From: Pseudomonadota bacterium
Lineage (GTDB): Bacteria; Chloroflexota; UBA5177
DNA: 42,963 nt
NCBI GenBank assembly: GCA_021324655.1
Contig: JAJPIP010000056.1
Span: forward strand, 1-42,963
Reading direction: 5' to 3'
Shown here: in pieces, positions 9,463-41,675 of the stretch
Numbering within the stretch: the first letter of the stretch is position 1
Layout: every line of letters starts with the position of its first letter
The notes under the pieces: generated by a model
What the model was told of the DNA's origin: nothing
Database searches by the model: none
Seen by the model: only the letters and a program-made list of their open reading frames with translations
Program-made: the position numbers and the translations under genes

Positions 9463-9468
9463 CTCCGT

Positions 9469-10695
9469 TCAGGCCGGCTGTTCGTACGGCTTGACCGGGG
9501 AGCCGAGCAGCCGCCGGCGCCAGCGAAAGGCGCCGTACGCGGCGACGGAGGAGCCGAGAATCATGACGATGCCGGCCCCGACGAAGGGAACGGGATGGTT
9601 CTGATGGTAGAGCGGCAGCGCCAGGAACGAGGCAATGGCGCCGCCGATAGAGCCCACAAAGCCGGCAACTCCCTGCACGCGGCCCCGAGCCTGGACCGGT
9701 GAGGCGTCGGCCAGCAGACCCTGGGCGACGGGCTGCTGGAAGATGATGACGATGCCCTCGATGACCCCAACCACCGCGATGGCAATGAGATTGTGCATGA
9801 AGCCGTAGGCGGCATAGATGCAGCCGGCGGCGAGGCCGGAGACGAGCAGGAACGGCGCCCGGCCGAAACGGTCGGCGATGCGCCCGGCACCGGCGCCAAG
9901 GAAGATCTGGGGCAAGGCAAAGACGCTGAACGTGACTCCGATGTATGTGTAGGATCCGCCCAGGTCATGCACCCAGATGGCCCAGAGCGCGCCGAGCACT
10001 CCAAAGGCCACCTGCACCGCGAGAAATGAGGCGTAGACCGCGATCAGGACCATGCTGAAGAGAGCGCGCAACGGCGCACGCTCCTCGTGGCGACTCGCCT
10101 GGTGGGTCGCCGGCTCGTGGACGCTGGTGATGACCAGCGGAATGGCGAGCGCTTCCACCCCGACACTGATGACGAAAGCCGTCACGAAGCCGAAGTGCTG
10201 AGCGATCACGCCGCCGAACAGCGGACCGAGCAGCAAGCCGCCGTTGAGGGTGGCGCCGAGAGCCCCGTACGCCTCGGAGCGATGTTCCTCGGAGGTGACG
10301 TCGGCGATATAAGCGCTGGTCGAGGGCTGGAAGGCGGCGACCGTCATGCCTTCCAGCAGCCGCAGCACGATCAGCTCGTTGGGATGGTAGAGCGGGATGT
10401 AGAGCAGAGTGATCAGCGGGTGGGTAATCAGCCCGAGAAGAAAGACCGGCACGCGTCCCCAGTGATCCACCAACCAGCCCATCGGCAGCTGCGCCACCAG
10501 GGCGCCGACCATGAAGGCAGCCGCCAGAATGCCCAGCTGCGTGGGCGAGGCGTGGTGCGCCTGCGCGTAGAGCATGCGCAGGGGGAAGGTGATGGAGGCC
10601 GCGAGAAAGGAGAGGAAGGTGGCGGTGAACAGCAGGCGCAGGTCACGCCGCCGCCAGACATCGCCTCCCAGCAGCCGGATCAGACCGGCGAGCAC
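9469..10695 (-). CDS. MFS transporter (multidrug/sugar efflux type)
   Basis: 408 aa from GTG 10695, chosen because it begins 1 nt after the TGA of the preceding peptidase gene; a longer open frame upstream only reads through that gene. About 12 hydrophobic helices are seen. The motif-A-like loop GWLVDHWGRVPV between TM2 and TM3 and its second-half copy GRIADRFGRAPF are both visible, which is typical of drug:H+ antiporter-like MFS proteins. LRLLEGMTVAAFQPSTSAYIA fits TM4-5. No strong SD is visible, so translation probably depends on coupling with the upstream gene. Substrate unknown. The neighbours suggest export or uptake of a peptide or glycosylated small molecule, but this is speculative. 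Confidence 0.85.
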   Translation of the reverse strand: MLAGLIRLLGGDVWRRRDLRLLFTATFLSFLAASITFPLRMLYAQAHHASPTQLGILAAAFMVGALVAQLPMGWLVDHWGRVPVFLLGLITHPLITLLYIPLYHPNELIVLRLLEGMTVAAFQPSTSAYIADVTSEEHRSEAYGALGATLNGGLLLGPLFGGVIAQHFGFVTAFVISVGVEALAIPLVITSVHEPATHQASRHEERAPLRALFSMVLIAVYASFLAVQVAFGVLGALWAIWVHDLGGSYTYIGVTFSVFALPQIFLGAGAGRIADRFGRAPFLLVSGLAAGCIYAAYGFMHNLIAIAVVGVIEGIVIIFQQPVAQGLLADASPVQARGRVQGVAGFVGSIGGAIASFLALPLYHQNHPVPFVGAGIVMILGSSVAAYGAFRWRRRLLGSPVKPYEQPA

Positions 10696-10696
10696 G

Positions 10697-12637
10697 TCAG
10701 CCGGCCGGAGTGGGAGCGTTCTCGAGCTCGATGGCCTCGATCTCTTCCTGCAATGGAAGGTTGAAGACCTGGGCGTAGAACGAGAGCTCCCCGTCGAGGG
10801 TGCGCTTGATGTTCTCGGCCCTTCGGAAGCCGTGCCCCTCTCCCTCGTAGGCGATGTAGGCGAAAGGAGTGCCGCGGGCCCGCAGACCGTGCGCCATGAT
10901 CTCCGCCTGATTCGGCGGTACAACCTTATCGTCCAGACCCTGGAAGAGCAGGACCGGACTGGTCACCTGATCGATGTAATTGATCGGCGACCGTTCGCGG
11001 TAGAGCTCCTTCGCCTCGGGATAGGGACCGACCAGGCCATCGGTATAGCGCGACTCGAACTTGTGGGTGTCGTCCACGAACGGATCGAGGTCGGCAATCC
11101 CGAAGTAGCTGGTGCCGGCCGCGAACGCGTCGCGGAAGGCGAGAGCGGCCAGCGTGGTATAGCCGCCGGCACTGCCGCCGTGAATAATCAGGCGGTCCGG
11201 ATCGGCCACACCGCGCTCGACGAGGTAGCGGGCAGCGTTGACGGCATCGTCCACGTCCACCACGCCCCACTGCCCCTTCAGCCGGTCACGGTACTCACGT
11301 CCGTACCCCGTGCTGCCGCCGTAGTTGACGTCGATCACGCCGAAGCCGCGGCTGGTCCAGAACTGCGTGCTCAAGTTCAGTGTGCTGGATGCCGACCCGG
11401 TGGGTCCGCCATGGACACTGACGATGAGCGGAGGCAACTCGCCGGCGGGGGCGCGGTAGTCGGGGTTGTGGGGAGGATAGTACAGCGCATGCGCCGTGAG
11501 CCCGTTCTCGGTGGGAAACTCGATGGCCTGCGGTGGGGAGAGATACTCCGTGGGCACGGAGAGCCCGGTCGAGCGGCGCAACACCTGGACGGACTGGCTG
11601 GGGAGATCAATCTGCACGATGGACAACGGCTCGGTCGGGGAGCCGGCGAGAACGACCGCGCGCCCCGGTTGAGCGACAACACCGCCGATCGACGTGTAGG
11701 GGACGTCGATCATCCGAAAACTCCCGCTGTCGAGGTTCAGGGTGTACAGACTGTTGGTCCCGTGCCGGGACAGCGAGCCGACGACCGTGTTCCTGTCGGC
11801 AAAGGCATAGGTGGTCATGCCGAAGACCCACTGCGGCGCCCCAAACTCGGCGTCCATGGGATGGAGAGCCTCGATCTCGCCGTCCGTCAGTCGGTACAGA
11901 TTCCACCAGCCGGTCCGGTCGGACGCGAACACCAGGTGGCCGACGGGTGACCATTCCGGCTGGAAGATCGACTCGCCGGTGCCGCCGGCCACGCGGCGGG
12001 CATTCGCCGGCGATCCGTCGCCGGCCACGGAGGCCGTCCACAGCTCGGTTCCATCCCAGGGCATGTTGGGGTGGTTCCAGGTGAGGTAGGCGAGAGTGGC
12101 GCCGTCGGGGCTGAGACGCGGGTTGGAGTAGAAGTTGTTGCCGGAAATCAGCACCCGCTCGCTGCCGTCTAGATTGACGGCGACGATGGTATTGTCCGCC
12201 TCGGAATCCGGATGGCTGTGGTCCTCGCGAACACAGAGGACGCGCTGCCGCGCCTCGTCCACGACAAGATCGGCGTAACGATAGGCGCTCTCCGCCGTGA
12301 TCGGCTCCGGCTCGGAGCCCGGTGCCTGCCGATAAAGGCGGTTGTCGTCGAAGTTCGAGAAGTAGACGATGCCGCGCGAGACCGTATAGGCTCCGCCCCC
12401 GTACTCGTGGACGCGCGTCCGCACGTTGTATCCCGGTGGGGTGACATCAGACACCTCGCCGTTGGCGTGGCGGCGGACAAGAACCGAACGGCCCCCCTCG
12501 GAGGGGCGAGACTCGATCCAGTACGTATCGTCACCATCCAGCACGATCGCGGTAAGACTGACGGCCTCAGAGACGATGAGATCCGACGAAATCGGGGAGC
12601 GCCAGGTCCCGTACGGCGCCGTGCGAGTCACAGTCAT
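10697..12637 (-). CDS. S9 (prolyl oligopeptidase/acylaminoacyl peptidase-like) serine peptidase
   Basis: 646 aa. The N-terminal ~350 residues form a seven-bladed-propeller-like domain with repeated blades (SNPRLSPDGATLAYLTW, FQPEWSPVGHLVFASDRTG). The C-terminal alpha/beta hydrolase has VSVHGGPTG (oxyanion hole), the nucleophile elbow GGSAGGY (Ser ~489), LDDKVVPPNQ (Asp ~569/570) and GEGHGF (His ~602), so the triad is complete. No signal peptide is seen and it is likely cytoplasmic. The family trims short peptides, N-acyl peptides or esters. GGGAGGG lies 6 nt before the ATG, and a TATACT -10 is at 12673-12668. It is first in the minus-strand run that continues with MFS, GT4 and a membrane protein. 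Confidence 0.9.
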   Translation of the reverse strand: MTVTRTAPYGTWRSPISSDLIVSEAVSLTAIVLDGDDTYWIESRPSEGGRSVLVRRHANGEVSDVTPPGYNVRTRVHEYGGGAYTVSRGIVYFSNFDDNRLYRQAPGSEPEPITAESAYRYADLVVDEARQRVLCVREDHSHPDSEADNTIVAVNLDGSERVLISGNNFYSNPRLSPDGATLAYLTWNHPNMPWDGTELWTASVAGDGSPANARRVAGGTGESIFQPEWSPVGHLVFASDRTGWWNLYRLTDGEIEALHPMDAEFGAPQWVFGMTTYAFADRNTVVGSLSRHGTNSLYTLNLDSGSFRMIDVPYTSIGGVVAQPGRAVVLAGSPTEPLSIVQIDLPSQSVQVLRRSTGLSVPTEYLSPPQAIEFPTENGLTAHALYYPPHNPDYRAPAGELPPLIVSVHGGPTGSASSTLNLSTQFWTSRGFGVIDVNYGGSTGYGREYRDRLKGQWGVVDVDDAVNAARYLVERGVADPDRLIIHGGSAGGYTTLAALAFRDAFAAGTSYFGIADLDPFVDDTHKFESRYTDGLVGPYPEAKELYRERSPINYIDQVTSPVLLFQGLDDKVVPPNQAEIMAHGLRARGTPFAYIAYEGEGHGFRRAENIKRTLDGELSFYAQVFNLPLQEEIEAIELENAPTPAG

Positions 12638-12718
12638 GATGTCCCTCCCACCACAAGAAGCGATCTCAGTATAGAAGGGAACTGAGACGAGCCCACATCC
12701 CTCGGCTCTGCTCTCCCC

Positions 12719-12763
12719 TTGATTTTCTCGTTCTCCCTACTTATAATTTAGACGAGACTAATT
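12719..12763 (+). promoter_or_regulatory. mntR-type promoter and DtxR-family operator
   Basis: The -35 TTGATT (12719-12724) and -10 TATAAT (12742-12747) are separated by 17 bp. Overlapping the -10 and the start region is an 18-bp imperfect palindrome at 12746-12763, ATTTAGAC-GA-GACTAATT (6 of 8 positions per half-site symmetric). It has the TTAGnC half-site look of DtxR/MntR operators. Metal-bound regulator sitting here would block its own promoter and thus also the downstream transporter gene. Confidence 0.7.
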
Positions 12764-12779
12764 CTTGACTGAGACACTC

Positions 12780-13472
12780 ATGCGCTCGACGGCCGAACAG
12801 GACTATCTGAAACAGATTTACCTCCTCCAGGAGGGGAGCGGCCGTGCCACCACCCAGTTGCTGGCGGAGCGGCTTGGTGTCAAGCCCCCCTCGGTGACGG
12901 CGATGATCCGGCGTCTCGCCGAGGACGAGGATGGCCCCCTGGTCATGCATACCCCGTATCGGGGCGTCGAGCTGACGCCGCGTGGCCTGGCGGTTGCCCT
13001 CGAGATGCTGCGGCACCACCGCCTCATCGAGTTGTTTCTCAGCGAACTGCTGGACGTGCCGTGGGACCAGGTGCACGGCGAGGCCGAGCGGCTGGAGCAC
13101 GTCATCTCGGAGGAGTTGGAGGAGCGGATCGCCGCCAAGCTCGGCTATCCCACCGTCGATCCACACGGCGATCCTATCCCGTCGCGTGAGGGCATCATGC
13201 CGGTGCGGGACCTGTGTCGCCTGACCGACATGCCGGCCGGCGTGACCGGCCGGATCGCGCGGATCGAGCAGCAAGATGAGGCGGTTCTGCAATATCTCGC
13301 CTCCCTCGGCTTGACCCTGGACGCACTGGTTCGTGTCGTCGCGATCGCTCCATTCGGTGGGGTGGTCACCGTCGAGGTGGAGGGCTCGGACGGCTCACTC
13401 CGTCACGCCATCGGCGAAGGGCTGGCGGAGCGGGTTCTTGTTCAGCACAGCGAGAGCGATCTGCCGGCATGA
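12780..13472 (+). CDS. mntR: DtxR/MntR-family metal-dependent repressor
   Basis: 230 aa from ATG 12780; an in-frame TTG 15 nt upstream is the alternative. Residues 1-65 are the winged helix (AEQDYLKQIYLLQEGSG, TTQLLAERLGVKPPSVTAMI). Residues ~70-140 are the metal-binding dimerisation domain, with RHHRLIELFLSELLDVPWD and the ligand-type residues E-H in EAERLEHVIS. The C-terminus (~155-225) is an SH3/FeoA-like domain. The family binds Mn(II) or Fe(II) and represses metal uptake. The gene overlaps mntH by 4 bp (ATGA), so this protein most likely senses Mn and regulates that importer through the operator at its own promoter. No strong SD is present. Confidence 0.9.
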   Translation: MRSTAEQDYLKQIYLLQEGSGRATTQLLAERLGVKPPSVTAMIRRLAEDEDGPLVMHTPYRGVELTPRGLAVALEMLRHHRLIELFLSELLDVPWDQVHGEAERLEHVISEELEERIAAKLGYPTVDPHGDPIPSREGIMPVRDLCRLTDMPAGVTGRIARIEQQDEAVLQYLASLGLTLDALVRVVAIAPFGGVVTVEVEGSDGSLRHAIGEGLAERVLVQHSESDLPA

Positions 13473-14821
13473 GCGCGCGTGCGTATCGCTCGCTCGAACC
13501 GGCCAGTATCAGTGATCTCGCCCCGGAAGATGTAGCGCTCAACGCCGCGGCGCACGTGGCGCTGAGCGGAGGCGGCCCCGGCCTGCTGCGCCTCCTGCCC
13601 TTCTTCGGTCCCGCGTTCATCGCCTCGGTCGCCTATATCGATCCGGGGAACTTTGCCACCAATATCCAGGGCGGCAGCCAGTTCGGCTATCGCCTGCTCT
13701 GGGCCATCGTCATGGCCAACCTGATGGCGATGTTGATTCAGACGCTCTCCGCCAAGCTGGGGATCGCCACCGGCCGGAATCTGGCGGAGCTGGTCGGCGA
13801 GCACTTCTCGAAAGGGCTTGTTTACCCGATGTGGGCCTTCTCCGAGGTCGCTGCCATGGCCACCGACCTGGCCGAGTTCCTGGGAGCCACGCTCGGCTTG
13901 AATCTGCTGTTCCACATCGATTTGCGCATCGGCGTCATCATCACGGCGATTGCCACGTACGGGATCTTGATGCTGCAGCGCTACGGCGTCCGTCCCATCG
14001 AAGCCATCATCAGCGCCATGGTCGGCGTGATCGCCGCCAGCTACGTCATCGAGACGTTCTTCTCGCGGCCTAACCTGGGCCTGGTGGCTTATCACAGCGT
14101 GGTGCCCTATCTGGGAGGCAGCAGCGTCATCCCGGTTGTCGGCATCATCGGCGCCACCGTCATGCCCCACGTCGTGTACCTCCACTCGGCTCTCACGCAG
14201 AACCGCATCATTCCTCGCACCGAGCAGGAGGCCAGGCGGATCTTCCACTTCACCATCCCGGAGATTCTGATCGCCCTCGGGCTGGCCGGATTGATCAACA
14301 TGTCGATGCTGTACATGGCGGCGGCGACGTTCTATCAGCATCATTTGACGCGCATTGCCGACATCCCCTCGGCCTTCCATACGTTGACCCCGCTTCTCGG
14401 CCCCGCTGCCGGCATCGTCTTCGCCATCTCTTTACTGGCCTCCGGCCTCTCCAGCTCTGCCGTTGGGACCATGGCCGGCCAGATCATCATGCAAGGGTTC
14501 GTGGGTTTCACCATCCCCCTCTGGCTCCGCCGGATTCTCACGATGATTCCGACGATCGTGATCGTCTGGGCTGGGCTCAACCCCACGCAGAGCCTCTTCT
14601 GGAGCCAGGTCATTCTCAGCATGGTTCTGCCGCTCCCGATCATTGCGCTCATCTACTTCACGCGGCGTCGCGACCTGATGGGAAATCTGGTCAACCACAC
14701 GGCGACGACGTGGATCGCCGGCATCGTGGCCGGCGTCATCCTCGTGCTGAACCTCCTGCTGCTCTACGTATCGGCACACACCCTGGTGCCGGGCGTGCCG
14801 GCCCTTCCCGGTATCAATTAG
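13469..14821 (+). CDS. mntH: Nramp-family Mn(II)/divalent metal transporter
   Basis: 450 aa with about 11 membrane helices. TM1 carries the metal-binding DPGN (58-61, in SVAYIDPGNFATN), and TM6 carries MPHVVYLHS (~232-240), equivalent to the MPH motif. Both unwound-helix signatures needed for proton-coupled Mn(II)/Fe(II) import are intact. The N-terminal ~40 residues are a soluble extension, longer than in many homologues. The start overlaps the stop of the regulator gene, giving a two-gene metal-homeostasis operon. The stop codon (14819-14821) overlaps the stop of the convergent methyltransferase gene (14820-14818), so there is no room for a separate terminator. Confidence 0.93.
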   Translation: MSARAYRSLEPASISDLAPEDVALNAAAHVALSGGGPGLLRLLPFFGPAFIASVAYIDPGNFATNIQGGSQFGYRLLWAIVMANLMAMLIQTLSAKLGIATGRNLAELVGEHFSKGLVYPMWAFSEVAAMATDLAEFLGATLGLNLLFHIDLRIGVIITAIATYGILMLQRYGVRPIEAIISAMVGVIAASYVIETFFSRPNLGLVAYHSVVPYLGGSSVIPVVGIIGATVMPHVVYLHSALTQNRIIPRTEQEARRIFHFTIPEILIALGLAGLINMSMLYMAAATFYQHHLTRIADIPSAFHTLTPLLGPAAGIVFAISLLASGLSSSAVGTMAGQIIMQGFVGFTIPLWLRRILTMIPTIVIVWAGLNPTQSLFWSQVILSMVLPLPIIALIYFTRRRDLMGNLVNHTATTWIAGIVAGVILVLNLLLLYVSAHTLVPGVPALPGIN

Positions 14822-15465
14822 CCGCCGGCAAAGGTGTAGACTCCGGTCCGTCTGAGCTCGCGCTCCTCGAGCCCCGGCACGGTGCGGATGTCGTAGTCGG
14901 CGAGGTGGACCAATCCGGCCGGGCGATAGGCGCGGCCGGGATCGCCCATCAGCACCCGCGCGCCCCGGGACGCTGCCGCCCGGAGCCAGACGGCCATGCG
15001 CGATGCCATCGGCTGTTCATAAAAGACGTCGCCCGCCAGGATGACGTCGCGGCCGTGGGGTGTGTCGACCAGGGGATCACGGATCGTCACGGGAATGTGG
15101 ACGCCATTGGCGCGCGCGTTGAGAGCGATGACGTCGGCGCAGAACGGATCGGTATCGGCGGCCTCCACGGACGCGGCGCCGGCGCGCGACGCGGCGATGG
15201 CCGCCAGTCCGGAGCCGGCCGCGACGTCGAGGACGCTTTTGCCTCGAATCTCTTGAGGATGATCGGTGACGTATCGAGCCAGCGCCGCTCCCCCCGGCCA
15301 GACAAACGCCCAGAAGGGCGGCGGGGCATCGTCGTTATGCGTCGCCGTCTGCAACGCTTCCCAGGTTTCCATGACCTTGTCCGCCTGGTACAGACGGATC
15401 GACGGCAGATTGCGGACCGGCTGGAGCCGCGTGTGACGGAGGACGAAGTCGGAGGGCAGGGACAT
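14818..15465 (-). CDS. class I SAM-dependent methyltransferase (ETFB/nicotinamide N-MTase-like)
   Basis: 215 aa. Motif I VLDVAAGSGLAAIAAS (~85-100) binds SAM, EAADTDPF follows as motif II, and DVILAGDVFYEQP is the post-I/IV region. The early PPFWAFVWPGGAALARY segment is typical of the family containing ETFB-lysine and related protein methyltransferases. The substrate is unknown, with protein lysine the likeliest by family resemblance. The ATG at 15465 has only a weak SD (GGAAAC). The last codon overlaps the mntH stop on the opposite strand. The promoter should lie in the divergent gap towards the gtrA-like gene (15466-15587). Confidence 0.8.
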   Translation of the reverse strand: MSLPSDFVLRHTRLQPVRNLPSIRLYQADKVMETWEALQTATHNDDAPPPFWAFVWPGGAALARYVTDHPQEIRGKSVLDVAAGSGLAAIAASRAGAASVEAADTDPFCADVIALNARANGVHIPVTIRDPLVDTPHGRDVILAGDVFYEQPMASRMAVWLRAAASRGARVLMGDPGRAYRPAGLVHLADYDIRTVPGLEERELRRTGVYTFAGG

Positions 15466-15587
15466 GGCACAAACGTTTCCATGGTATTGTCCGTTCGACC
15501 TACTTCCGTCTCTCTCGATTCCTGATAGTCTCTATACGTGACTTTTTCTCCTGCCTCCCGTGTCCTGATAGGCGAGGGTCGTTCCTC

Positions 15588-16022
15588 GTGAGCCGGCTAC
15601 GCCATGTCCTTCCGCGTCCCCTCCGCTTCGTCTGCGCCGGTGGTGCCTCCGCGGTCGTTCAGCTGGCCCTGCTGGGCTTTTTCACGACGCACGGCCTGCA
15701 CTGGCTGGTCGCGGAGTTGTTGGCGCTGTTCGTGTCGGCTCAAGCCAGCTTCGGGCTCAACTCGACTCTGACCTGGCACGATCGGTGGGAGGGGGCTTCC
15801 TGGCCCCGCCGCTGGGTGCTATTCCACATGGCGATCGCCGGTACGACCGGCCTGAACCTCACGATTTTCCTGCTGGCACACCAGGTTCTGCCGCCGCTGC
15901 CGTCCTCGGCCCTGGGCATCGGCGTGGCGGCCGTGGCGAACTTCCTGATCGGCGACCATCTGGTGTTCCGCCTGGCGGCACCGGCGGTCGCGGCGCCACT
16001 GCCGGAGCTCGACGCCTCCTAG
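15588..16022 (+). CDS. GtrA family membrane protein
   Basis: 144 aa, GTG start, with GAGG about 11 nt and further purines upstream. Four membrane helices are visible: FVCAGGASAVVQLALLGFF, LVAELLALFVSAQASFGLN, WVLFHMAIAGTTGLNLTIF and ALGIGVAAVANFLIGDHLV. The closing NFLIGDHLVFR matches the family's conserved N-F-x(5)-W/V-F-R ending. GtrA-like proteins are proposed to flip or hand over polyprenyl-linked sugars during surface glycan synthesis. No glycosyltransferase gene adjoins it, so its glycan partner cannot be named; the GT4 at 8329 is 6 kb away. Confidence 0.85.
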   Translation: MSRLRHVLPRPLRFVCAGGASAVVQLALLGFFTTHGLHWLVAELLALFVSAQASFGLNSTLTWHDRWEGASWPRRWVLFHMAIAGTTGLNLTIFLLAHQVLPPLPSSALGIGVAAVANFLIGDHLVFRLAAPAVAAPLPELDAS

Positions 16023-16035
16023 ACTCGAGAACCGG

Positions 16036-16440
16036 CTACGCCGCACAGGCGGCGTGGACGGCCGGCACGAGATCGGTGGCGAGCCGTCTCTTGACGACGT
16101 ACGCGCAGGCGCCCGCTTGCTCCGCCCGGGCGATGCACTGCGGCTCGTCGTACACCGACAGCATGATCAGCCGTGTCTCGGGTTCGGTTCTGCGGATCCG
16201 TTTCGCCGCTTCCAGTCCCCCCATTCGTGGCATCGCGACGTCCAGAATCGCCACGCGGGGATGCAGCTCGGCGGCCAGTTCGTTGGCCTCGATTCCATCC
16301 ACCGCTTCGCCGATGACCGTGATGCCCATCTCGGCGAGAAGGGTGCGGACCGTTTCTCGCACGAGAGGATGGTCGTCGGCAACCAGAACGGTGATGTGAG
16401 TGACGTCGGACACCAGGATGACTCCGTATGAACGCTGCAT
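16036..16440 (-). CDS. single-domain response regulator (CheY-like receiver)
   Basis: 134 aa. The receiver fold is complete: ADDHP acidic pair (~21-22), phospho-acceptor Asp in VAILDVAMP (~67), Ser in IMLSVYDE and Lys in YVVKR. No output domain follows, so the protein ends shortly after helix 5 (LVPAVHAACAA). The sequence resembles the receiver half of NarL/FixJ regulators (ADDHPLVRETVRTLL) with the LuxR-type HTH missing. A start at the GTG of VTHITVLV would be closer to typical receivers than the ATG at 16440. No histidine kinase adjoins. It may act by protein-protein contact. A repeated ATAGGG motif lies upstream. Confidence 0.88.
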   Translation of the reverse strand: MQRSYGVILVSDVTHITVLVADDHPLVRETVRTLLAEMGITVIGEAVDGIEANELAAELHPRVAILDVAMPRMGGLEAAKRIRRTEPETRLIMLSVYDEPQCIARAEQAGACAYVVKRRLATDLVPAVHAACAA

Positions 16441-16490
16441 GCTTCACGGTGGGGCTACCTTAAGTGTGCCGGTGCCGACAAAGGCAGGTG

Positions 16491-16531
16491 AATAGGGTAG
16501 GGGCCCTATTTTCGCGCCGAGTGGACCCTAT
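16491..16531. promoter_or_regulatory. AATAGGG inverted repeat plus a third half-site upstream of the response regulator
   Basis: AATAGGG (16491-16497) and CCCTATT (16504-16510) form a perfect 7-bp inverted repeat with a 6-nt gap. Another CCCTAT follows at 16526-16531, 22 bp (two helical turns) from the second copy. The arrangement on one DNA face upstream of the response regulator gene suggests an operator. The binder is unknown. Confidence 0.4.
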
Positions 16532-16568
16532 ATCCTGGGCGCACCCGGCAGGTCGCGGCAACCCGGCG

Positions 16569-17429
16569 TCAATACGGGCAGTGAGCCGACCGCCCGGTCA
16601 AGAGGAGACGGACGATGCGAGCGGTGTTCTGCTCGACGATGATCGGATCACCGCATCTGTCGAGCGTGAGCCCCTGCGGGTTGGCGAGGCCGCCCAGGAC
16701 ACGGGTGGTGCCGGCATTGGTTAGACGCCACAGCCCGCCATCACCAAGAGACGTGACCCAGATAACGCCGTTACTCGAGACCGCGACGTCATCCGGCGTT
16801 GAGAACGAGCCTCGATATCTGATCCGGCCGCGCGGAGGAATGACAACGAGCGTTCCGAGATGCTCGTCCGGCACGAGAACATCTCCGCGCCGATCGACGG
16901 CGGCATCCACGGGACGCCCCAGGTTGCGGGCGATGATGCTGGAACGGAGTCCGTTCGCTGCGGTCCGGATAACGGTGCCGCGCGGCGAATCGGGAATGAG
17001 AAGGTCACCGGTCCGCGGGTCGCGGCCAATGCCGTCAACCCCCTCCTGGCCGGAGACGGGAACCAGCGCGACCAGGACTTGCACTTTTCGCCCGTGAAGA
17101 CTGACGACACGGTCCAGGCCCTGCTCCGCCACCACCAGATCGTGACGGCGCGGAATGACGCCTTCCGGCACCGAGAGGCCGCGCGCGATGGTGAACACGC
17201 GCCCACCCTGGAGGCGCTCGATCGTTCCCCGCGCCAGGTTTCCCCAGACGAGCCGGCCCGAGGTATCGACGGCAATGTCGTCCGGCTGTCCTCCCGGGAC
17301 TGCCAGCACCTGCAGCGCGCCGGCGGCAAGGGAGGGCGACGTGGAAGTCGGCGCCATAGCGGGCGCGAGCAGCGTCGCCAGGAGGAGCAGAGCGCGGCGG
17401 GTGGGCCGCGCCAATCGCGGGCAATGCAT
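16569..17429 (-). CDS. secreted NHL/SMP-30-like beta-propeller protein
   Basis: 286 aa. A signal peptide is evident: a basic start (MHCPRLARPTRRA), a Leu-rich core (LLLLATLLAPAMA) and a processing region near SLAAGA. The rest repeats NHL-like blades of about 40 residues with the pattern P-D-D-I/V-A-V-D: GGQPDDIAVDTSGRLVWGN, GRPVDAAVDRRGDVLVPDE, STPDDVAVSSNGVIWVTSL and ANPQGLTLDRCGDPIIVEQ. Such propellers occur in gluconolactonase-like enzymes and in binding scaffolds. The metal ligands of true SMP-30 enzymes cannot be assigned by eye, so a binding role is equally possible. A GGGAGA SD precedes the ATG. Operon membership is unclear. Confidence 0.75.
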   Translation of the reverse strand: MHCPRLARPTRRALLLLATLLAPAMAPTSTSPSLAAGALQVLAVPGGQPDDIAVDTSGRLVWGNLARGTIERLQGGRVFTIARGLSVPEGVIPRRHDLVVAEQGLDRVVSLHGRKVQVLVALVPVSGQEGVDGIGRDPRTGDLLIPDSPRGTVIRTAANGLRSSIIARNLGRPVDAAVDRRGDVLVPDEHLGTLVVIPPRGRIRYRGSFSTPDDVAVSSNGVIWVTSLGDGGLWRLTNAGTTRVLGGLANPQGLTLDRCGDPIIVEQNTARIVRLLLTGRSAHCPY

Positions 17430-17536: not shown

Positions 17537-17962
17537 ATGTCCGATACCGATATGCCGAACGTGGACATGACAGACGAGCCGGTGCAGCCGAGCACCGGCG
17601 ATCACCCTTTCTGGCAGGATCTCAATCCGGACTTCCTCGCCGGTGAGAACTATGGATTGCAAGGCCCGCATCCGGAGAAGGGTCCGCGTAACGCCTATGA
17701 CGTCAAAGGGGCGCACGACAAACTACAGGGCATGGAGGATGACGACCTGAAGAAGATCCCGATCATGCCCGTGGGCAGCCGCCTCGAGCAGGGCGCCACG
17801 TACCTCGATCTTCACCAGGCTCATCCGGTTGAGTTCACGGCCATGGGCAATATGACGGCCGGGTCCGACAACTGGTACGTCCCGAAGTCGGCCACGCCCT
17901 ACTGGCTGTGGAATCGGCTCATCGGGGTCGAGAACCCGTCGCGCCTGGACACCACCACCTAG
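17537..17962 (+). CDS. hypothetical acidic hydrophilic protein, 141 aa
   Basis: ATG 17537 is chosen because GAGGAG lies 6 nt upstream and the earlier part of the open frame (from 17447) has poor composition. The protein starts with an acidic, Met-rich segment (MSDTDMPNVDMTDEP) and contains HPFWQDLNPDFLAGENYG and KIPIMPVGSRLEQGATYLDL. It ends near PSRLDTTT. It has no signal peptide, no hydrophobic helix and no Cys. A segment such as HPVEFTAMGNMTAGSDNWYV may be a small beta domain. I do not recognise it. It is transcribed away from the propeller gene, and a GC hairpin follows its stop. Confidence 0.65.
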   Translation: MSDTDMPNVDMTDEPVQPSTGDHPFWQDLNPDFLAGENYGLQGPHPEKGPRNAYDVKGAHDKLQGMEDDDLKKIPIMPVGSRLEQGATYLDLHQAHPVEFTAMGNMTAGSDNWYVPKSATPYWLWNRLIGVENPSRLDTTT

Positions 17963-17970
17963 CTGCTCGG

Positions 17971-17998
17971 TCCTCCGCGCGCGATGGTCCGCGGAGGA
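17971..17998 (+). terminator. GC hairpin after the acidic hypothetical gene
   Basis: TCCTCCGCG (17971-17979) pairs perfectly with CGCGGAGGA (17990-17998) around a 10-nt loop, 9 nt after the stop codon. There is no T-tract. It separates this gene from the riboswitch-led transcript. Confidence 0.5.
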
Positions 17999-18133
17999 GA
18001 TGCCGGAGCGTCGCCCGCTCGCAGGACAAAAGACCAGCGCCTGCACGGTCCGAAGGACCATAGTCATGTAACACACTTTCCGCTTTACTCGTGGTGCTTC
18101 TCCACTCGAGAGAGCGGTAGCAAGCGAGACAAC

Positions 18134-18206
18134 CGACAAAGGCAAACCCGTCGTGAGGCGGGGACGCAAAGCCACGGGACTCCAGGGAGTTAGCCGGGTT
18201 GCCGAA
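18134..18206 (+). ncRNA. cyclic di-GMP-I riboswitch (GEMM-I aptamer)
   Basis: The GEMM-I consensus is directly visible. A-rich entry with AGGCAAACC (18139-18147) is followed by a stem capped by the GNRA loop GTGA, then GGGACGCAAAGCCACGGG with the tetraloop-receptor side, and finally the second arm ending GTTAGCCGGGTTGCCG. These elements form P1b/P2 and P1b/P3, with the GTGA tetraloop docking on its receptor; c-di-GMP binds at the three-way junction. The aptamer lies 235 nt upstream of the WxL-domain gene on the same strand, with no gene between. It therefore most likely makes the surface-protein cluster respond to c-di-GMP. Whether it switches on or off cannot be read from the sequence. Confidence 0.93.
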
Positions 18207-18222
18207 ATGACACGAACCTCCC

Positions 18223-18317
18223 GTCAAATCGCGCCCGATGACTCCCGGTTCCCGGAACAAGGAAAGGAGGAGTGATCGGGCGCTTGACGTGAGAGGGGTC
18301 AGTGGACAACCACTGAC
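18223..18317 (+). promoter_or_regulatory. structured leader (expression platform?) after the c-di-GMP aptamer
   Basis: Two hairpins follow the aptamer. The first pairs GTCAA (18223-18227) with TTGAC (18284-18288) and GCGCCCGAT (18231-18239) with ATCGGGCGC (18275-18283), then ACTCC (18241-18245) with GGAGT (18269-18273). That is about 19 bp with a 3-nt bulge. It buries a perfect AAGGAGG SD (18264-18270), which is followed by a very short frame from GTG 18272 (6 codons). The second hairpin is GTCAGTGG (18298-18305) with CCACTGAC (18310-18317) and an ACAA loop. No T-tract follows either. The next 120 nt up to the WxL gene hold no gene I can support. Confidence 0.5.
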
Positions 18318-18440
18318 GGCCCGACACCGGCGCCAGGCGTCGCGACGCCACATTGAGCAAAGCGGCCGGCTGCACCGCATGCCGGGCCCGCGGACTACCA
18401 GAAAGGACCGCCCCTTCCCGGGGGCCTAGAAAGGACCAGA

Positions 18441-19055
18441 ATGTTCAAGACAACTCGCATCCTCGCCGCTGCAGCGTTCCTGGGCCTTGGCGCCGTGTCG
18501 CTCGGCGGCGTCGCTCACGCGGCGGGTGGGGCGACGCAGGTCGCGCTGACCGGGGGCACCCTCGGCGTGACGGGGGGATCTCCCGGCACATTCAGCGCGA
18601 CGCTGACCGGCTCGAACCAGACCGCCGACACGACCCTCGGCACCTACACGGTGACCGATGCGACCGGAACCGGGCTCGGCTGGAACGTCACGTTCCAGGC
18701 GACGCAGTTCACCTGTACGGTTGGCACGGATGCCGGCTGCAAGACAGGCCTGACCACCCTCCCGTGGAATTCATTGAGCATCGCGCCGCCGTCCGCGGTC
18801 TGCGCGAGCGGTTCGCTCTGTACCGGCGCGCCAAGTGATTCGATCAGCAGCAACACGGCGATCGACACTGGTTCCGGCACCACCCCGGGGTCTGCGGTGA
18901 AAGTTCTCTCCGCCGCCGCCCTGAGCGGTATCGGCTCGTACACCGTGACACCCGGCACGATCGGCACCGGTCAGCTGGAGCTCGCCATTCCCGGCAACGC
19001 GCTCGCCACGACCTACCACTCCACCATCACCATCACCGTCAACTCCGGTCCGTAG
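18441..19055 (+). CDS. WxL-domain-like exported surface protein
   Basis: 204 aa, with AAAGGA 6-7 nt before the ATG. There is a clean signal peptide (MFKTTRILAAAAFLGLGAVS ... AHA, cut near AHA-AG). The mature part is Gly/Thr/Ser-rich and beta-type. GTYTVTDATGTGLGWNVTFQ and ATQF match the first WxL-domain block (GW-x-V near a TQF), and IGSYTVTPG plus a closing Y-H-S-T-I-T-I-T-V match the C-terminal block. The domain binds peptidoglycan non-covalently in Firmicutes. Two Cys pairs (CTVGTDAGC, CASGSLC) may form disulphides. The second W-x-L is not exact, so it is a divergent member. The gene is first behind the c-di-GMP riboswitch and directly followed by a DUF916 gene, its usual partner. Confidence 0.75.
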   Translation: MFKTTRILAAAAFLGLGAVSLGGVAHAAGGATQVALTGGTLGVTGGSPGTFSATLTGSNQTADTTLGTYTVTDATGTGLGWNVTFQATQFTCTVGTDAGCKTGLTTLPWNSLSIAPPSAVCASGSLCTGAPSDSISSNTAIDTGSGTTPGSAVKVLSAAALSGIGSYTVTPGTIGTGQLELAIPGNALATTYHSTITITVNSGP

Positions 19056-19062
19056 TTCGTTC

Positions 19063-19093
19063 GGGAGTCGCCGTCCGTGCGGCGGCGACTCCC
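19063..19093 (+). terminator. strong hairpin between the WxL and DUF916 genes
   Basis: GGGAGTCGCCG (19063-19073) pairs perfectly with CGGCGACTCCC (19083-19093) around a 9-nt loop, 7 nt after the WxL stop. No T-tract follows. It could be a partial terminator or a 3' stabiliser that makes the WxL mRNA more abundant than the downstream genes. Confidence 0.55.
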
Positions 19094-19116
19094 CTCTCCC
19101 TCAGGAAAGGATTCTC

Positions 19117-19980
19117 GTGCGCACCACACGGTTCTTCTGCCGGCCGCTGGCCGCTCTTCTGATCGGTGCGGCATGGCTCGTCCCGGCCGCAGCCGGCATT
19201 GTGAACGCGGCCGGCGCGACCGGTTTGCCGGTGAGCCTCCGGCCCTCTGACGCCGCCGGCAATCTCCTGCCCGGACCCGGATACTTTCGGTTCACGGCGG
19301 CAGCCGGCACCACCACCCAGCTCTACGCCCTGGTGGGGAATCCATCGCACCGGACCGGAGAGATTCGGATCGTGCCGGTGGACGCGGCGACCGGTGTGTA
19401 TGGCGGCGTCACAGCCCGACTCGCCTCGCAGCCGCGGCGACATGCCGGGCGCTGGATACACCTCGCGATGACCAGGGTGACGCTTCATCCCGATCGCGGC
19501 GAGGTCGTTCCTTTCACGGTCACGGTCCCCGCGAGCGCCCGTCCGGGTCAGTATGTCGCGGCCCTGACCGCCTTTACGCCCTCGCAGGACACGGCACGGG
19601 GACGTGACTTTGCCGTGACGGTGCAGACCCGTCTGGCGGACTTCGTGGTCATCACGGTCCCCGGCGCGGAGCATCGCGCGTTTCGTCTGCGGGGACTGAG
19701 CGTTCAGCGCCGGACGGCGAGCACCTATGTCATCGCCTACATTCACAACTCCGGCACCATGATGCTGCACGGGTGGGGATACCTCTGGGTCTGGGGGCCG
19801 CGCCACAAGAACCCGATCCTCTCGCGCGCATTAGCCATCGGTACGACTCTCCCGCATAGCACGGCTCAGTACCCCATCGAGCTGGGCGCCCACCCCCTAC
19901 GCGGCGTGTACAGCTACCATCTAAAGGTGTGGTGGCGCGGCGGCATGGTCACGCGACACGCTGCATTCAGGGTGTCATAG
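19117..19980 (+). CDS. DUF916-type WxL-interacting protein, without membrane anchor
   Basis: 287 aa, GTG start with AGGAAAGG 7 nt upstream. The signal peptide (CRPLAALLIGAAWLVPAAAG) is cleaved near VNAAG. The DUF916 region is recognisable: a YFRFTAAAGTTTQLYALVGN strand pair (normally 'G-YF-L...P-G-..-...V-N'), a V-D-A-T-G-V-Y-G-G block, then GEVVPFTVTVPASARPGQY and VAALTAF. A second Ig-like part follows (TYVIAYIHNSGTMMLHGWGY, LPHSTAQYPIELG). In Firmicutes, DUF916-DUF3324 proteins bind WxL proteins and are anchored by a C-terminal helix. This one stops at AAFRVS with no hydrophobic tail, so it must be held by its partner, another anchor or be released. Confidence 0.72.
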   Translation: MRTTRFFCRPLAALLIGAAWLVPAAAGIVNAAGATGLPVSLRPSDAAGNLLPGPGYFRFTAAAGTTTQLYALVGNPSHRTGEIRIVPVDAATGVYGGVTARLASQPRRHAGRWIHLAMTRVTLHPDRGEVVPFTVTVPASARPGQYVAALTAFTPSQDTARGRDFAVTVQTRLADFVVITVPGAEHRAFRLRGLSVQRRTASTYVIAYIHNSGTMMLHGWGYLWVWGPRHKNPILSRALAIGTTLPHSTAQYPIELGAHPLRGVYSYHLKVWWRGGMVTRHAAFRVS

Positions 19981-20050
19981 TACTGACCCTGGCACGTCGA
20001 GTCGCGACAGATATTGCCGCTGTTGAAAGGAAGTAATGACCCCGGCACGT
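19981..20050. repeat. 17-bp near-direct repeat between the DUF916 and unknown exported genes
   Basis: TACTGACCCTGGCACGT at 19981-19997 recurs as TAATGACCCCGGCACGT at 20034-20050 (15/17 identical, 53 bp apart). It could be a pair of regulator sites or a small duplication. A GAAAGGAAG with ATG 20036 inside the second copy looks like a start, but the frame it opens is poor. Confidence 0.4.
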
Positions 20051-20114
20051 TCCGTGCACACCGGACTTGCGTATAGGGCCGTTTCCGTCAACTCGTCAAT
20101 TCGGAGGGAGATCG

Positions 20115-20645
20115 ATGATCAAACGACAGCTTCTCGCCTTACTGCTCATTGTCGGTGTTTTGACCGCCGTCACCCCCGCGACCGGCGCGTCGGCGGCATC
20201 AATCCCGCGCGCGCACGCCGCCGTGGTCATGGACCACCCGCACTTCCTCGATAAGACGCGGTTCCTTCTGCATACGGGTGCCGCGTTCTACGCCTTTCAT
20301 CACTGGGTGATCCGCGTCTGGCAGCAGGGCGGCTTCAAGAAGGGAGCGAAGCACCGCGTCAGCAACATCATCAAAGCCGGCATCGCGACGCTTTTCGCCG
20401 CACACGAGTTGCAGGTGGCATACAACATCGCAAAGAAGAGCAACAGCAAAACGTTGCATGCCATCATTGCGCCGGTGCAGAAGCTGCTGAGCATCGCCCA
20501 GCGCGCCGGTAGCAGCCTGAGGCACGGCAATTACAACGCGTCGGATGTCCAGACGATGTCGCACGATGTATCGTCCCTGGCATCGACAGCGGCCAGTGCG
20601 GGCATACCGATCAGGGATATCGTGACGCCTATTGCCGGCCTCTAA
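20115..20645 (+). CDS. unknown exported helical protein, 176 aa
   Basis: ATG 20115 has GGAGGGA 4-5 nt upstream. The signal peptide (MIKRQLLALLLIVGVLTAVTP, cut near ASAAS) is clear. The mature ~145 residues are helical and basic, with HHWVIRVWQQGGFKKGAKHRV, IKAGIATLFAAHELQVAYNI, AKKSNSKTLHAIIAPVQKL and a Ser-rich tail. No Cys and no known motif. The alternating basic-amphipathic helices could bind an acidic polymer or membrane. I cannot assign a family. The same strand and a 134-nt gap from the DUF916 gene, plus a terminator just after it, suggest it is the last gene of the riboswitch-led transcript. Confidence 0.7.
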   Translation: MIKRQLLALLLIVGVLTAVTPATGASAASIPRAHAAVVMDHPHFLDKTRFLLHTGAAFYAFHHWVIRVWQQGGFKKGAKHRVSNIIKAGIATLFAAHELQVAYNIAKKSNSKTLHAIIAPVQKLLSIAQRAGSSLRHGNYNASDVQTMSHDVSSLASTAASAGIPIRDIVTPIAGL

Positions 20646-20669
20646 AGACGTAACCGGCCGCCAGCACGC

Positions 20670-20707
20670 TGAGGCCCTTCGTTCGGTCTAAAGGACGAAG
20701 GGCCTCA
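20670..20707 (+). terminator. 13-bp hairpin terminator after the WxL cluster
   Basis: TGAGGCCCTTCGT (20670-20682) pairs perfectly with ACGAAGGGCCTCA (20695-20707) around a 12-nt loop, 25 nt after the stop of the unknown exported gene. It lacks a long T-tract. It probably separates that transcript from the GH5 gene, so the GH5 enzyme may have its own promoter. Confidence 0.65.
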
Positions 20708-20794
20708 TCATGCCCGGGGCCACCGACCTTGCGTGCCGCCCAACTGCCTGTCTAGAGTGGCAAGATGAGTCTCCGTCGCCGGGACGGAGACACG

Positions 20795-22036
20795 ATGGGG
20801 ATAGGGCAAGGGATGATGATACGTCGTGTTGTGTCGGGCGTGTCCATTGTGATGATGGTCACCGTAGCCATGATCAGTTCTCTGCGCACCGGGCATAGTG
20901 CTCAGGCGGCCGCTGCCGTCACCGGACTCACCGTCCAGGGTAATCAGATCGTGAACGGGAGCGGACAGCCGGTGCGCTTGCTCGGCGTTGATCGCTCCGG
21001 GACGGAATACGCCTGTATTCAAGGCTGGGGCATCTTCGATGGTCCCAACGACGCGACCTCGGTGCAGGCCATCGCGTCCTGGCATGTGAACGCGGTGCGC
21101 GTCCCTCTCAACGAGGACTGCTGGCTGGGCATCAACGGCGCCCCGGCCGCCTACTCTGGGTCCAATTACCAGCAAGCCATCGTCAACTACGTCAATCTGC
21201 TCAACCAGTACGGCATGGCGGTCATTCTCGATCTGCACTGGAATGCGCCGGGCACGACGCAGGCGACCGGTCAGGAGCCGATGCCCGATCAGGACCACGC
21301 GCCCGCCTTCTGGCAGTCGGTCGCCACGACGTTTGCCGGCAACAGTTCGGTGATCTTCGACCTGTACAACGAGCCGTATCCTGACTCCAATCAAGACACC
21401 ACTGCTGCCTGGACGTGCTGGCTGAACGGCGGCACCTGTCCCGGCGTCTCCTTCCCGGCGGCCGGCATGCAGGAGCTGGTGAACACCGTCCGGGCGACCG
21501 GCGCCAAGAACATCATCATGCTGGGCGGCGTGGAATACTCCAACAGTCTCAGTCAGTGGCTCAGCTACGAGCCCTCCGATCCGCTGAACAACCTCGCCGC
21601 CTCCTGGCACTCCTACAACTTCAACGTCTGCAACACGTCGACCTGCTGGAACAATCAGGTCGCGCCGGTCGCGCAGAAGGTTCCGGTCATCACCGGCGAG
21701 ATCGGGGAGAACGACTGCGCCGACGGCTACATCGATCCGTTGATGTCGTGGATGGATAGCCACGGAATCAGCTATCTCGGCTGGACGTGGGATACCTGGA
21801 ACTGCTCGAGCGGACCGGCCCTCATTTCGGACTACACCGGCACGCCCACCAATTTCGGTCTTGGATTCCAGCAGCACCTGGCGGCTCTGGCCGGCGCGAG
21901 CCCAACGGCAACCTCAGCCGCCAGTCCGACCACCACGCCGCGTCCGACGTCGACGTCCACTCCGACCGCGACGGCTATCCCTCCGACGAAGACGCCGTTG
22001 CCGACCGCGACCCCCAAGCCCCACGGCCACAAGTAA
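20795..22036 (+). CDS. secreted GH5-family glycoside hydrolase (cellulase-like)
   Basis: 413 aa from ATG 20795, chosen for GGAG 5 nt upstream. ATG 20765 is the alternative, but a 7-bp hairpin (20771-20789) follows it and it has no SD. A signal peptide with core SIVMMVTVAMISSL precedes AQAAAA. The catalytic region is a GH5 (beta/alpha)8 barrel: VNAVRVPLNEDCW, AVILDLHWNAPG, DLYNEPYPD (acid/base Glu), WHSYNFN and ITGEIGEND (nucleophile Glu), then YLGWTWDTWN. The last ~45 residues are a Pro/Thr/Ser-rich tail (SPTTTPRPTSTSTPTATA) ending PHGHK, like a linker with no module after it. The substrate is likely a beta-1,4-glucan or similar. It follows the c-di-GMP-controlled cluster on the same strand. 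Confidence 0.88.
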   Translation: MGIGQGMMIRRVVSGVSIVMMVTVAMISSLRTGHSAQAAAAVTGLTVQGNQIVNGSGQPVRLLGVDRSGTEYACIQGWGIFDGPNDATSVQAIASWHVNAVRVPLNEDCWLGINGAPAAYSGSNYQQAIVNYVNLLNQYGMAVILDLHWNAPGTTQATGQEPMPDQDHAPAFWQSVATTFAGNSSVIFDLYNEPYPDSNQDTTAAWTCWLNGGTCPGVSFPAAGMQELVNTVRATGAKNIIMLGGVEYSNSLSQWLSYEPSDPLNNLAASWHSYNFNVCNTSTCWNNQVAPVAQKVPVITGEIGENDCADGYIDPLMSWMDSHGISYLGWTWDTWNCSSGPALISDYTGTPTNFGLGFQQHLAALAGASPTATSAASPTTTPRPTSTSTPTATAIPPTKTPLPTATPKPHGHK

Positions 22037-41529: not shown

Positions 41530-41675
41530 CCCTTTACCGACGAAGGTTGTACGGGCGTCGGCGGGGAGCGGTTTTCTGGCTTGACTGACGTCTCACAGTA
41601 GCGTGGACTGCGCCGGTTTCACACCGGACTTGCCCGGACTCTCCGCCGTTTGCGAGTGCGCCTCAGACTAGCACG
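41530..41675 (-). ncRNA. cobalamin (B12) riboswitch
   Basis: Minus strand. The core GGCAAGTCCGGTGTGAAACC followed by GGCGCAGTCC and CGCTACTGTGA matches the B12 riboswitch core (G-G-G-A-A-x-x-CCGGTG-x-A-A-x-CCGGCGCxGxCCCGCxACTGT). The B12-box-like AAGCCAGAAAACCG follows at about 41583-41570. It lies upstream of the BtuF-like gene with an intrinsic terminator between them. Boundaries are approximate (left at the Cys-Gly-rich stem near 41530, right near 41675). Confidence 0.9.

What the first reader, a model, noticed from the sequence alone, without database searches (positions are those of the whole stretch)
18134..20645. c-di-GMP-I riboswitch directly upstream of a WxL/DUF916 surface module
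A near-consensus GEMM-I aptamer lies 235 nt upstream, same strand, with no gene between it and a WxL-like exported protein, a DUF916 partner and an unknown exported protein. All three have signal peptides. WxL/DUF916 systems are known mainly in Firmicutes as non-covalent peptidoglycan-bound surface proteins. This one is in a high-GC, Chloroflexota-like genome and appears to be tied to c-di-GMP, the sessile/motile signal. The GH5 enzyme follows on the same strand, although a strong hairpin separates it. The link between riboswitch and module is inference from order.
Basis: partly seen in the sequence, partly recalled or inferred. Interest (0 to 1): 0.82.

Follow-up and report, generated by a model that had tools for sequence, protein, structure and literature searches.

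The report
c-di-GMP riboswitch heading a WxL operon
In a soil-type Chloroflexota genome, an RNA sensor for the signal c-di-GMP lies directly before genes for a two-protein cell-surface module; the sensor is real and is predicted to switch the genes off, but no relative examined shows the same pairing, so it may be a recent re-targeting of a standard riboswitch.

Summary
A c-di-GMP-I (GEMM-I) aptamer lies at 18132-18207 (Rfam RF03167, 73.4 bits, E 1e-15), 233 nt upstream of a WxL-domain protein (PF13731, above cut-off). Next comes a WxLIP (DUF916/DUF3324) homologue: weak by single-sequence Pfam, secure by profile and fold match to E. faecium WxLIP structures 9i1y/9i25. The phylum is Chloroflexota.

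Three corrections. (1) The third exported protein is not part of the WxL module: its homologues stand alone in genomes without WxLIP. GH5 lies behind a -30 kcal/mol hairpin and a promoter-like site. (2) The linker is a real expression platform: an anti-aptamer strand, then a -43 kcal/mol hairpin (reversal reached by 0 of 200 shuffles), in the order of the C. difficile Cd1 OFF switch. Four of six other leaders in this family behave alike. Prediction: c-di-GMP lowers expression. (3) The pairing is singular: no other WxLIP-positive genome checked has GEMM-I beside WxLIP. In sister genera GEMM-I precedes a GH5 orthologue, transglutaminase-like genes or other exported proteins; here also GH16 and a GGDEF operon. 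The transglutaminase gene is missing here, and the linker may hold its remnant.

A new gene context for known parts; control of WxL is inferred.

The parts
17971..17998 (+). hairpin (TCCTCCGCG/CGCGGAGGA) after the upstream small gene 17537-17962; likely 3' end of that gene
   Evidence: inverted repeat; hairpins mark 3' ends in this genome
18132..18207 (+). c-di-GMP-I (GEMM-I, GGC subtype) aptamer
   Evidence: RF03167 73.4 bits, E 1.1e-15; RF01051 72.6 bits
18185..18197 (+). strand A: 3' side of aptamer stem P3, also able to pair with the platform
   Evidence: inverted repeat I3; folding by transcript length
18231..18246 (+). strand T: switching strand; pairs with A (anti-aptamer, using 18234-18246) or with H (hairpin, using 18231-18245)
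18269..18283 (+). strand H: 3' arm of the hairpin; carries a Shine-Dalgarno-like run
   Evidence: hairpin 18218-18293 -43.0 kcal/mol
18218..18293 (+). long hairpin of the expression platform, U-poor, attenuator candidate
18272..18292 (+). GTG ATC GGG CGC TTG ACG TGA: six-codon frame resembling the MIGRL.. start of riboswitch-controlled transglutaminase-like genes in G002; possible gene remnant
   Evidence: tentative
18441..19055 (+). small WxL-domain exported protein, 204 aa (GWNV and YHSTITITVNSGP in place of the two WxL motifs)
   Evidence: PF13731 35.7 bits; alignments
19063..19093 (+). perfect hairpin between WxL and WxLIP, -26.6 kcal/mol
19117..19980 (+). WxLIP (DUF916+DUF3324) homologue, 287 aa, no C-terminal transmembrane helix
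20115..20645 (+). exported 176-aa protein X, stand-alone family in sister genera; not a WxL component
20670..20708 (+). strong hairpin between X and GH5 (core of 20656-20721), about -30 kcal/mol
20729..20758 (+). promoter-like TTGCGT-N18-TAGAGT before GH5
   Evidence: consensus match only; the stricter scan did not report it
20816..22036 (+). exported GH5 glycosidase (start could be 20765); its orthologue in G002 lies directly behind a GEMM-I
   Evidence: PF00150 120.5 bits

Best explanation
The leader is a c-di-GMP-sensing riboswitch of the Cd1 type (strand order P-A-T-H) that lowers expression of the WxL gene, and through read-through of WxLIP, when c-di-GMP is high. With c-di-GMP bound, the aptamer keeps strand A (18185-18197), so T (18231-18245) pairs with H (18269-18283) and the long U-poor hairpin forms and attenuates the transcript. 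Without ligand, T pairs with A first, delaying the hairpin, and RNA polymerase reads on into WxL. The products are exported: a small WxL protein expected to coat the cell wall and a WxLIP partner that binds it. X and GH5 are neighbours rather than module parts; GH5 probably has its own promoter but may receive read-through. Shown: aptamer, protein families, non-random platform. Inferred: ligand, direction, termination, protein function.
For: Aptamer far above threshold; its letters at 18140-18143 are A-G-G-C, and by my own alignment to the Vc2 riboswitch 18141 is the G20 position, whereas G20A is the change linked to cGAMP binding (PMC6274999). Folding growing transcripts: between about 18249 and 18279 the aptamer costs up to 17-18 kcal/mol because A pairs with T; at 18285 the T-H hairpin forms and the aptamer returns. 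This reversal of 15.1 kcal/mol was reached by 0 of 200 dinucleotide-shuffled linkers (mean 3.5, sd 2.6). Four other leaders of the family (GH16, G004 transglutaminase, G002 GH5, G002 L059) show the same behaviour, each 0 of 60 shuffles, and in the short ones the H strand contains the Shine-Dalgarno, so both kinds read as OFF. The P-A-T-H logic and OFF outcome are established for Cd1 (PMC9262584). In 632 kb of this genome, hairpins of -18 kcal/mol or stronger follow 33% of convergent gene ends against 5% of divergent starts and 3% of coding stretches, mostly without U-tracts, so a U-poor hairpin can plausibly end transcripts here. The genome has c-di-GMP signalling: its third GEMM-I heads an operon with a PAS-GGDEF cyclase.
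Against: No homologous leader exists for covariation, so the platform rests on thermodynamics alone. The hairpin has no U-tract. It ends 147 nt before the WxL start and does not cover the WxL Shine-Dalgarno. Two of six other leaders (G002 TG1, TG2) did not show the reversal beyond shuffles. The association is not conserved in any relative. No promoter-like site was found upstream of the aptamer.
Confidence: 0.5

Rival explanations
1. Orphaned riboswitch: the leader once controlled another gene (most likely a transglutaminase-like exported protein) that was lost in this genome. What remains upstream of WxL is a relic or a recently captured regulator, and WxL is transcribed independently or by unregulated read-through.
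For: Transglutaminase-like genes stand directly behind GEMM-I in G002 (twice) and G004 and exist in G001, but none is found in this 96%-complete genome. The linker at 18272 reads V-I-G-R-L-T-stop, like the MIGRL/MIGRC starts of those genes, and aligns colinearly with G002 TG2 (0 of 500 shuffles; 10 of 1491 random genome segments). No relative has GEMM-I next to WxL.
Against: The alignment is significant against one of three transglutaminase leaders only, and about 0.7% of genomic segments score as well. No promoter-like site lies between 18208 and 18440.
Confidence: 0.27
2. The riboswitch belongs with GH5: the ancestral unit is GEMM-I followed by GH5, as in G002, and WxL, WxLIP and X were inserted between them, so the switch now controls a longer operon ending in GH5.
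For: The G002 orthologue of the window GH5 (76% aa identity) lies directly behind a GEMM-I. Both leaders are long, with strong hairpins and the anti-aptamer reversal.
Against: A strong hairpin and a promoter-like site precede the window GH5. The linker sequences of the two leaders are not detectably similar.
Confidence: 0.13
3. ON switch: c-di-GMP raises WxL expression, fitting a sessile-state surface protein.
For: C-di-GMP often promotes adhesins (general knowledge); the hairpin is U-poor, so it might act other than by termination, for example by shielding a Rho entry site.
Against: The P-A-T-H order gives the hairpin when ligand is bound, as in the Cd1 OFF switch (PMC9262584); family leaders with Shine-Dalgarno in H also read as OFF.
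Confidence: 0.1

Closest known systems
c-di-GMP-I riboswitch (GEMM-I; Rfam RF01051, subtype RF03167 c-di-GMP-I-GGC)
   Same: Aptamer sequence and structure far above the gathering score.
   Different: Heads a WxL/WxLIP pair; a search for papers naming c-di-GMP, riboswitch and WxL together found none in the held library.
Clostridioides difficile Cd1 c-di-GMP riboswitch (transcriptional OFF switch, PMC9262584)
   Same: Strand order P-A-T-H; A-T anti-aptamer fold competing with a T-H hairpin.
   Different: The hairpin here lacks a U-tract; no experimental data.
WxL / WxLIP gene clusters of Bacilli (csc clusters; PMC1534035, PMC9772566, PMC10599100)
   Same: Small WxL protein next to a DUF916-DUF3324 protein, both exported; fold match to E. 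faecium WxLIP 9i25/9i1y.
   Different: No large WxL protein and no LPxTG protein seen in this cluster; second Trp motif absent; WxLIP lacks the C-terminal transmembrane helix; Chloroflexota host.
WxL triad of relative G005 (same order; contig JAJPKF010000025.1, Centralia_MAG_67, titled Proteobacteria in the record)
   Same: Small WxL and WxLIP in the same order, 37-54% identity.
   Different: Has a large Kelch-Fn3-WxL protein and a WxLIP with transmembrane helix; no GEMM-I.

Membership tests
c-di-GMP-I riboswitch (RF01051/RF03167) | Covariance-model score above gathering threshold | tested here: met
   73.4 bits vs 59; 72.6 bits vs 35
c-di-GMP-I riboswitch (RF01051/RF03167) | G at the G20 position (c-di-GMP) rather than A (cGAMP) | tested here: met
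   18141 is G in AAAGGCAAACC; mapping to Vc2 numbering by my own alignment; meaning of G20A from PMC6274999
c-di-GMP-I riboswitch (RF01051/RF03167) | Binds c-di-GMP and changes expression | not testable with these tools
   needs in-line probing, ITC or a reporter
Cd1-type OFF switch | Aptamer, anti-aptamer and hairpin strands in P-A-T-H order | tested here: met
   0 of 200 shuffles reach the reversal
Cd1-type OFF switch | Hairpin followed by a U-tract (intrinsic terminator) | tested here: not met
   tail AGGGGTCAGTGG; but U-tracts are rare at gene ends in this genome
WxL domain protein (PF13731) | Profile above curated cut-off, signal peptide, C-terminal position | tested here: met
   35.7 vs 25 bits, residues 61-204 of 204; signal peptide by reading the sequence
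WxL domain protein (PF13731) | Two Trp-x-Leu motifs | tested here: not met
   first is GWNV, second YHSTITITV without Trp; the relatives compared also lack the second Trp
WxLIP (DUF916-DUF3324-TM) | PGBD (DUF916) profile match | tested here: inconclusive
   23.2 vs 27.3 bits alone; profile hit to EfmWxLIP1 E 1.5e-5, relative L061 36.7 bits, Foldseek top hits 9i25/9i1y from a low-confidence model
WxLIP (DUF916-DUF3324-TM) | HBD (DUF3324) domain | tested here: inconclusive
   E 0.03; C-terminal beta domain predicted at pLDDT 56-83 per block
WxLIP (DUF916-DUF3324-TM) | C-terminal transmembrane helix | tested here: not met
   sequence ends ..GMVTRHAAFRVS; the C13 paralogue also lacks it; L061, L062, L063 have it (by reading)
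Complete WxL cluster | Small WxL + large WxL + WxLIP together | tested here: not met
   no large WxL in the window cluster; the C13 cluster of the same genome has one

The most novel reading that the evidence does not exclude
A c-di-GMP OFF riboswitch lost its original exported transglutaminase-like gene and was captured by a WxL/WxLIP surface operon, giving non-Firmicute WxL proteins direct second-messenger control and leaving the old gene's start codons inside the leader as a fossil of the re-targeting.
Probability: 0.22. Interest if true: 0.55.

Novelty: new member of a known kind. Interest (0 to 1): 0.4.

Why it matters
WxL proteins are described almost wholly from Bacilli and discussed as host-binding surface proteins (PMC9772566, PMC10599100). 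Finding small WxL-WxLIP pairs in Chloroflexota, one of them behind a c-di-GMP sensor, would link this coat system to the sessile/motile decision. The wider pattern, GEMM-I before exported glycosidases, transglutaminases and other secreted proteins with a predicted OFF platform, suggests that these bacteria secrete such enzymes when c-di-GMP falls, which is directly testable.

Tried and rejected
Conserved GEMM-I/WxL linkage: rejected for this phylum sample. X as a WxL component: rejected. A promoter inside the leader from homology to the G004 WxL upstream region: no similarity; G004 WxL has its own TTGACT-N17-GATACT by reading. Equilibrium folding of full leaders did not separate bound from free states at the Shine-Dalgarno; only folding by transcript length did. 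AlphaFold of WxL with 3 sequences failed (mean pLDDT 41.6); of WxLIP with 2 sequences was poor except the C-terminal domain. Paper searches for GEMM-I or WxL in Chloroflexi gave nothing specific. A DosR-like box upstream of aptamers was chosen after seeing the sequences and is absent at the window, so it is not claimed.
Full report
CHECK OF THE OBSERVATION. The Rfam scan of the window gives RF03167 (c-di-GMP-I-GGC) at 18132-18207, plus strand, 73.4 bits, E 1.1e-15; the older model RF01051 gives 72.6 bits. The gene caller finds no gene between the aptamer and the ATG at 18441. The first gene (204 aa) matches PF13731 WxL above its cut-off; the second (287 aa) matches WxLIP_PGBD (DUF916) at E 7.7e-5, below the cut-off, and WxLIP_HBD at E 0.03. 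The second is nevertheless a WxLIP relative: a paralogue in the same genome is 38% identical, a seven-sequence profile hits E. faecium WxLIP structure 9i1y at E 1.5e-5, and the predicted model, though poor (mean pLDDT 48.6), has E. faecium WxLIP as its three best PDB matches. The phylum is Chloroflexota, because it includes single-contig 1.4-1.7 Mb genomes with 21-28 reductive-dehalogenase matches.

WHAT ELSE THE GENOME SHOWS. The genome (3.8 Mb, 96% complete) holds three GEMM-I aptamers. One stands 36 nt before an exported GH16. One heads an exported small protein followed by a PAS-GGDEF diguanylate cyclase. The third is the window's. A second WxL cluster on contig C13 contains a 1904-aa subtilase-like/Ig-like/WxL protein, two small WxL proteins and the WxLIP paralogue, without an aptamer.

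RELATIVES. RF03167 occurs in 27 of 151 genomes searched as relatives; WxLIP in 7 of 151 and in 27 of 400 phylum members, the two samples overlapping. Among the WxLIP-positive genomes only this one has a GEMM-I on the same contig as a WxLIP close by, and a model built from the family aptamers finds no convincing match near the WxLIP loci held. In the same family, G004 has WxL-WxLIP with 381 nt of upstream sequence and no aptamer, behind what reads as its own promoter. In G002, GEMM-I precedes a GH5 orthologous to the window's (76% aa; 74.6% DNA over 980 bp), two transglutaminase-like exported proteins and one long exported protein. In G004 it precedes a transglutaminase-like protein. Across the phylum sample many of the downstream genes that could be called also look exported, several of them protease-like by eye. 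So GEMM-I here generally goes with secreted proteins, and WxL is one client, seen once.

PROTEIN X. The third exported protein has homologues in G001, G003 (three) and G006, single genes in unrelated neighbourhoods, and those genomes have no WxLIP match. It is not part of the WxL module.

THE EXPRESSION PLATFORM. The linker contains arms 18231-18245 and 18269-18283 of a long hairpin (18218-18293, -43 kcal/mol), and 18234-18246 is also complementary to 18185-18197 inside the aptamer. Folding transcripts of growing length shows three phases: aptamer; anti-aptamer (aptamer penalty up to 17-18 kcal/mol at about 18249-18267); hairpin with aptamer restored from 18285. The size of the reversal (15.1 kcal/mol) is not reached in 200 dinucleotide shuffles. 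Four of six other leaders tested behave alike, 0 of 60 shuffles each; two do not. In the three short leaders among these four the hairpin's 3' arm holds the Shine-Dalgarno (read). This is the P-A-T-H order of the C. difficile Cd1 OFF switch, where aptamer and terminator coexist and compete with an anti-terminator (PMC9262584). The predicted sign is therefore OFF. The hairpin has no U-tract, but in 632 kb of this genome hairpins of -18 kcal/mol or stronger follow 33% of convergent ends and 22% of tandem ends against 5% of divergent starts and 3% of coding controls, while U-tracts are rare. The same class of hairpin lies between WxL and WxLIP (-26.6) and between X and GH5 (-29.8), the latter followed by TTGCGT-N18-TAGAGT.

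A POSSIBLE HISTORY. Transglutaminase-like genes, frequent GEMM-I clients in the family, are absent from this genome. The linker at 18272 reads GTG ATC GGG CGC TTG ACG TGA, like the ATG ATC GGA CGA CTG and GTG ATC GGT CGT TGT starts of the G002 genes, and aligns colinearly to one of them: none of 500 shuffles but 10 of 1491 random genome segments score as well. The two other leaders do not align. I treat this as a lead, not a result.

HOW IT PROBABLY WORKS. Low c-di-GMP: anti-aptamer, read-through, WxL made, some WxLIP. High c-di-GMP: hairpin, less WxL. WxL and WxLIP are expected to assemble on the wall as in Bacilli (PMC10599100), but the WxLIP lacks the membrane helix and the WxL lacks the second Trp motif, so anchoring may differ. 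Ligand, direction, termination and assembly are inferences.

COMPARISON AND VERDICT. The riboswitch is an ordinary member of a known class by every test available. The proteins belong to known families with degenerate or missing defining features. The new element is the gene context, for which a literature search returned nothing. It is unconserved, which lowers its weight: either a lineage-specific capture or an accident.

Noticed in passing
L012 (G000 C38): aptamer 5574-5655 -, genes 5593-5132 and 5125-3560 -: A GEMM-I riboswitch (RF01051, 55.5 bits) heads an operon that ends in a PAS-GGDEF diguanylate cyclase, so the signal's maker is itself under a c-di-GMP sensor.
   Followed up: partly
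G000, 632 kb sampled (window, L010-L012, L133-L172): Strong U-poor hairpins are about sevenfold enriched behind convergent gene ends over divergent starts, and U-tract terminators are rare; this Chloroflexota lineage may use U-less terminators.
   Followed up: partly
L010 (G000 C13) 8762-17112 -: A second WxL cluster with a 1904-aa S8 protease-like/Ig-like/WxL protein, two small WxL proteins and a WxLIP without transmembrane helix, no riboswitch.
   Followed up: partly
G010, G022, G079, G111 (family f7 of the phylum sample): Five to seven GEMM-I aptamers per genome, several in tandem pairs or triplets (for example G010:C1:2991442-2991705).
   Followed up: no
100-150 nt upstream of GEMM-I aptamers in L011, L054, L057, L060: DosR-like GGGACC..GGTCCC boxes appear more often than before other genes (P 0.0006, but the consensus was chosen after looking; not present before the window aptamer).
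   Followed up: partly
window 41550-41658 -: Cobalamin riboswitch (33.6 bits) upstream of a periplasmic binding protein of the Peripla_BP_2 family (40134-41165 -).
   Followed up: no
L132 / JAJPKF010000025.1: The record is titled Proteobacteria, but its contig has the same length as G005 C23 (199,367 bases), which the tool places in the same order as this Chloroflexota genome; the title is probably a mislabel.
   Followed up: no
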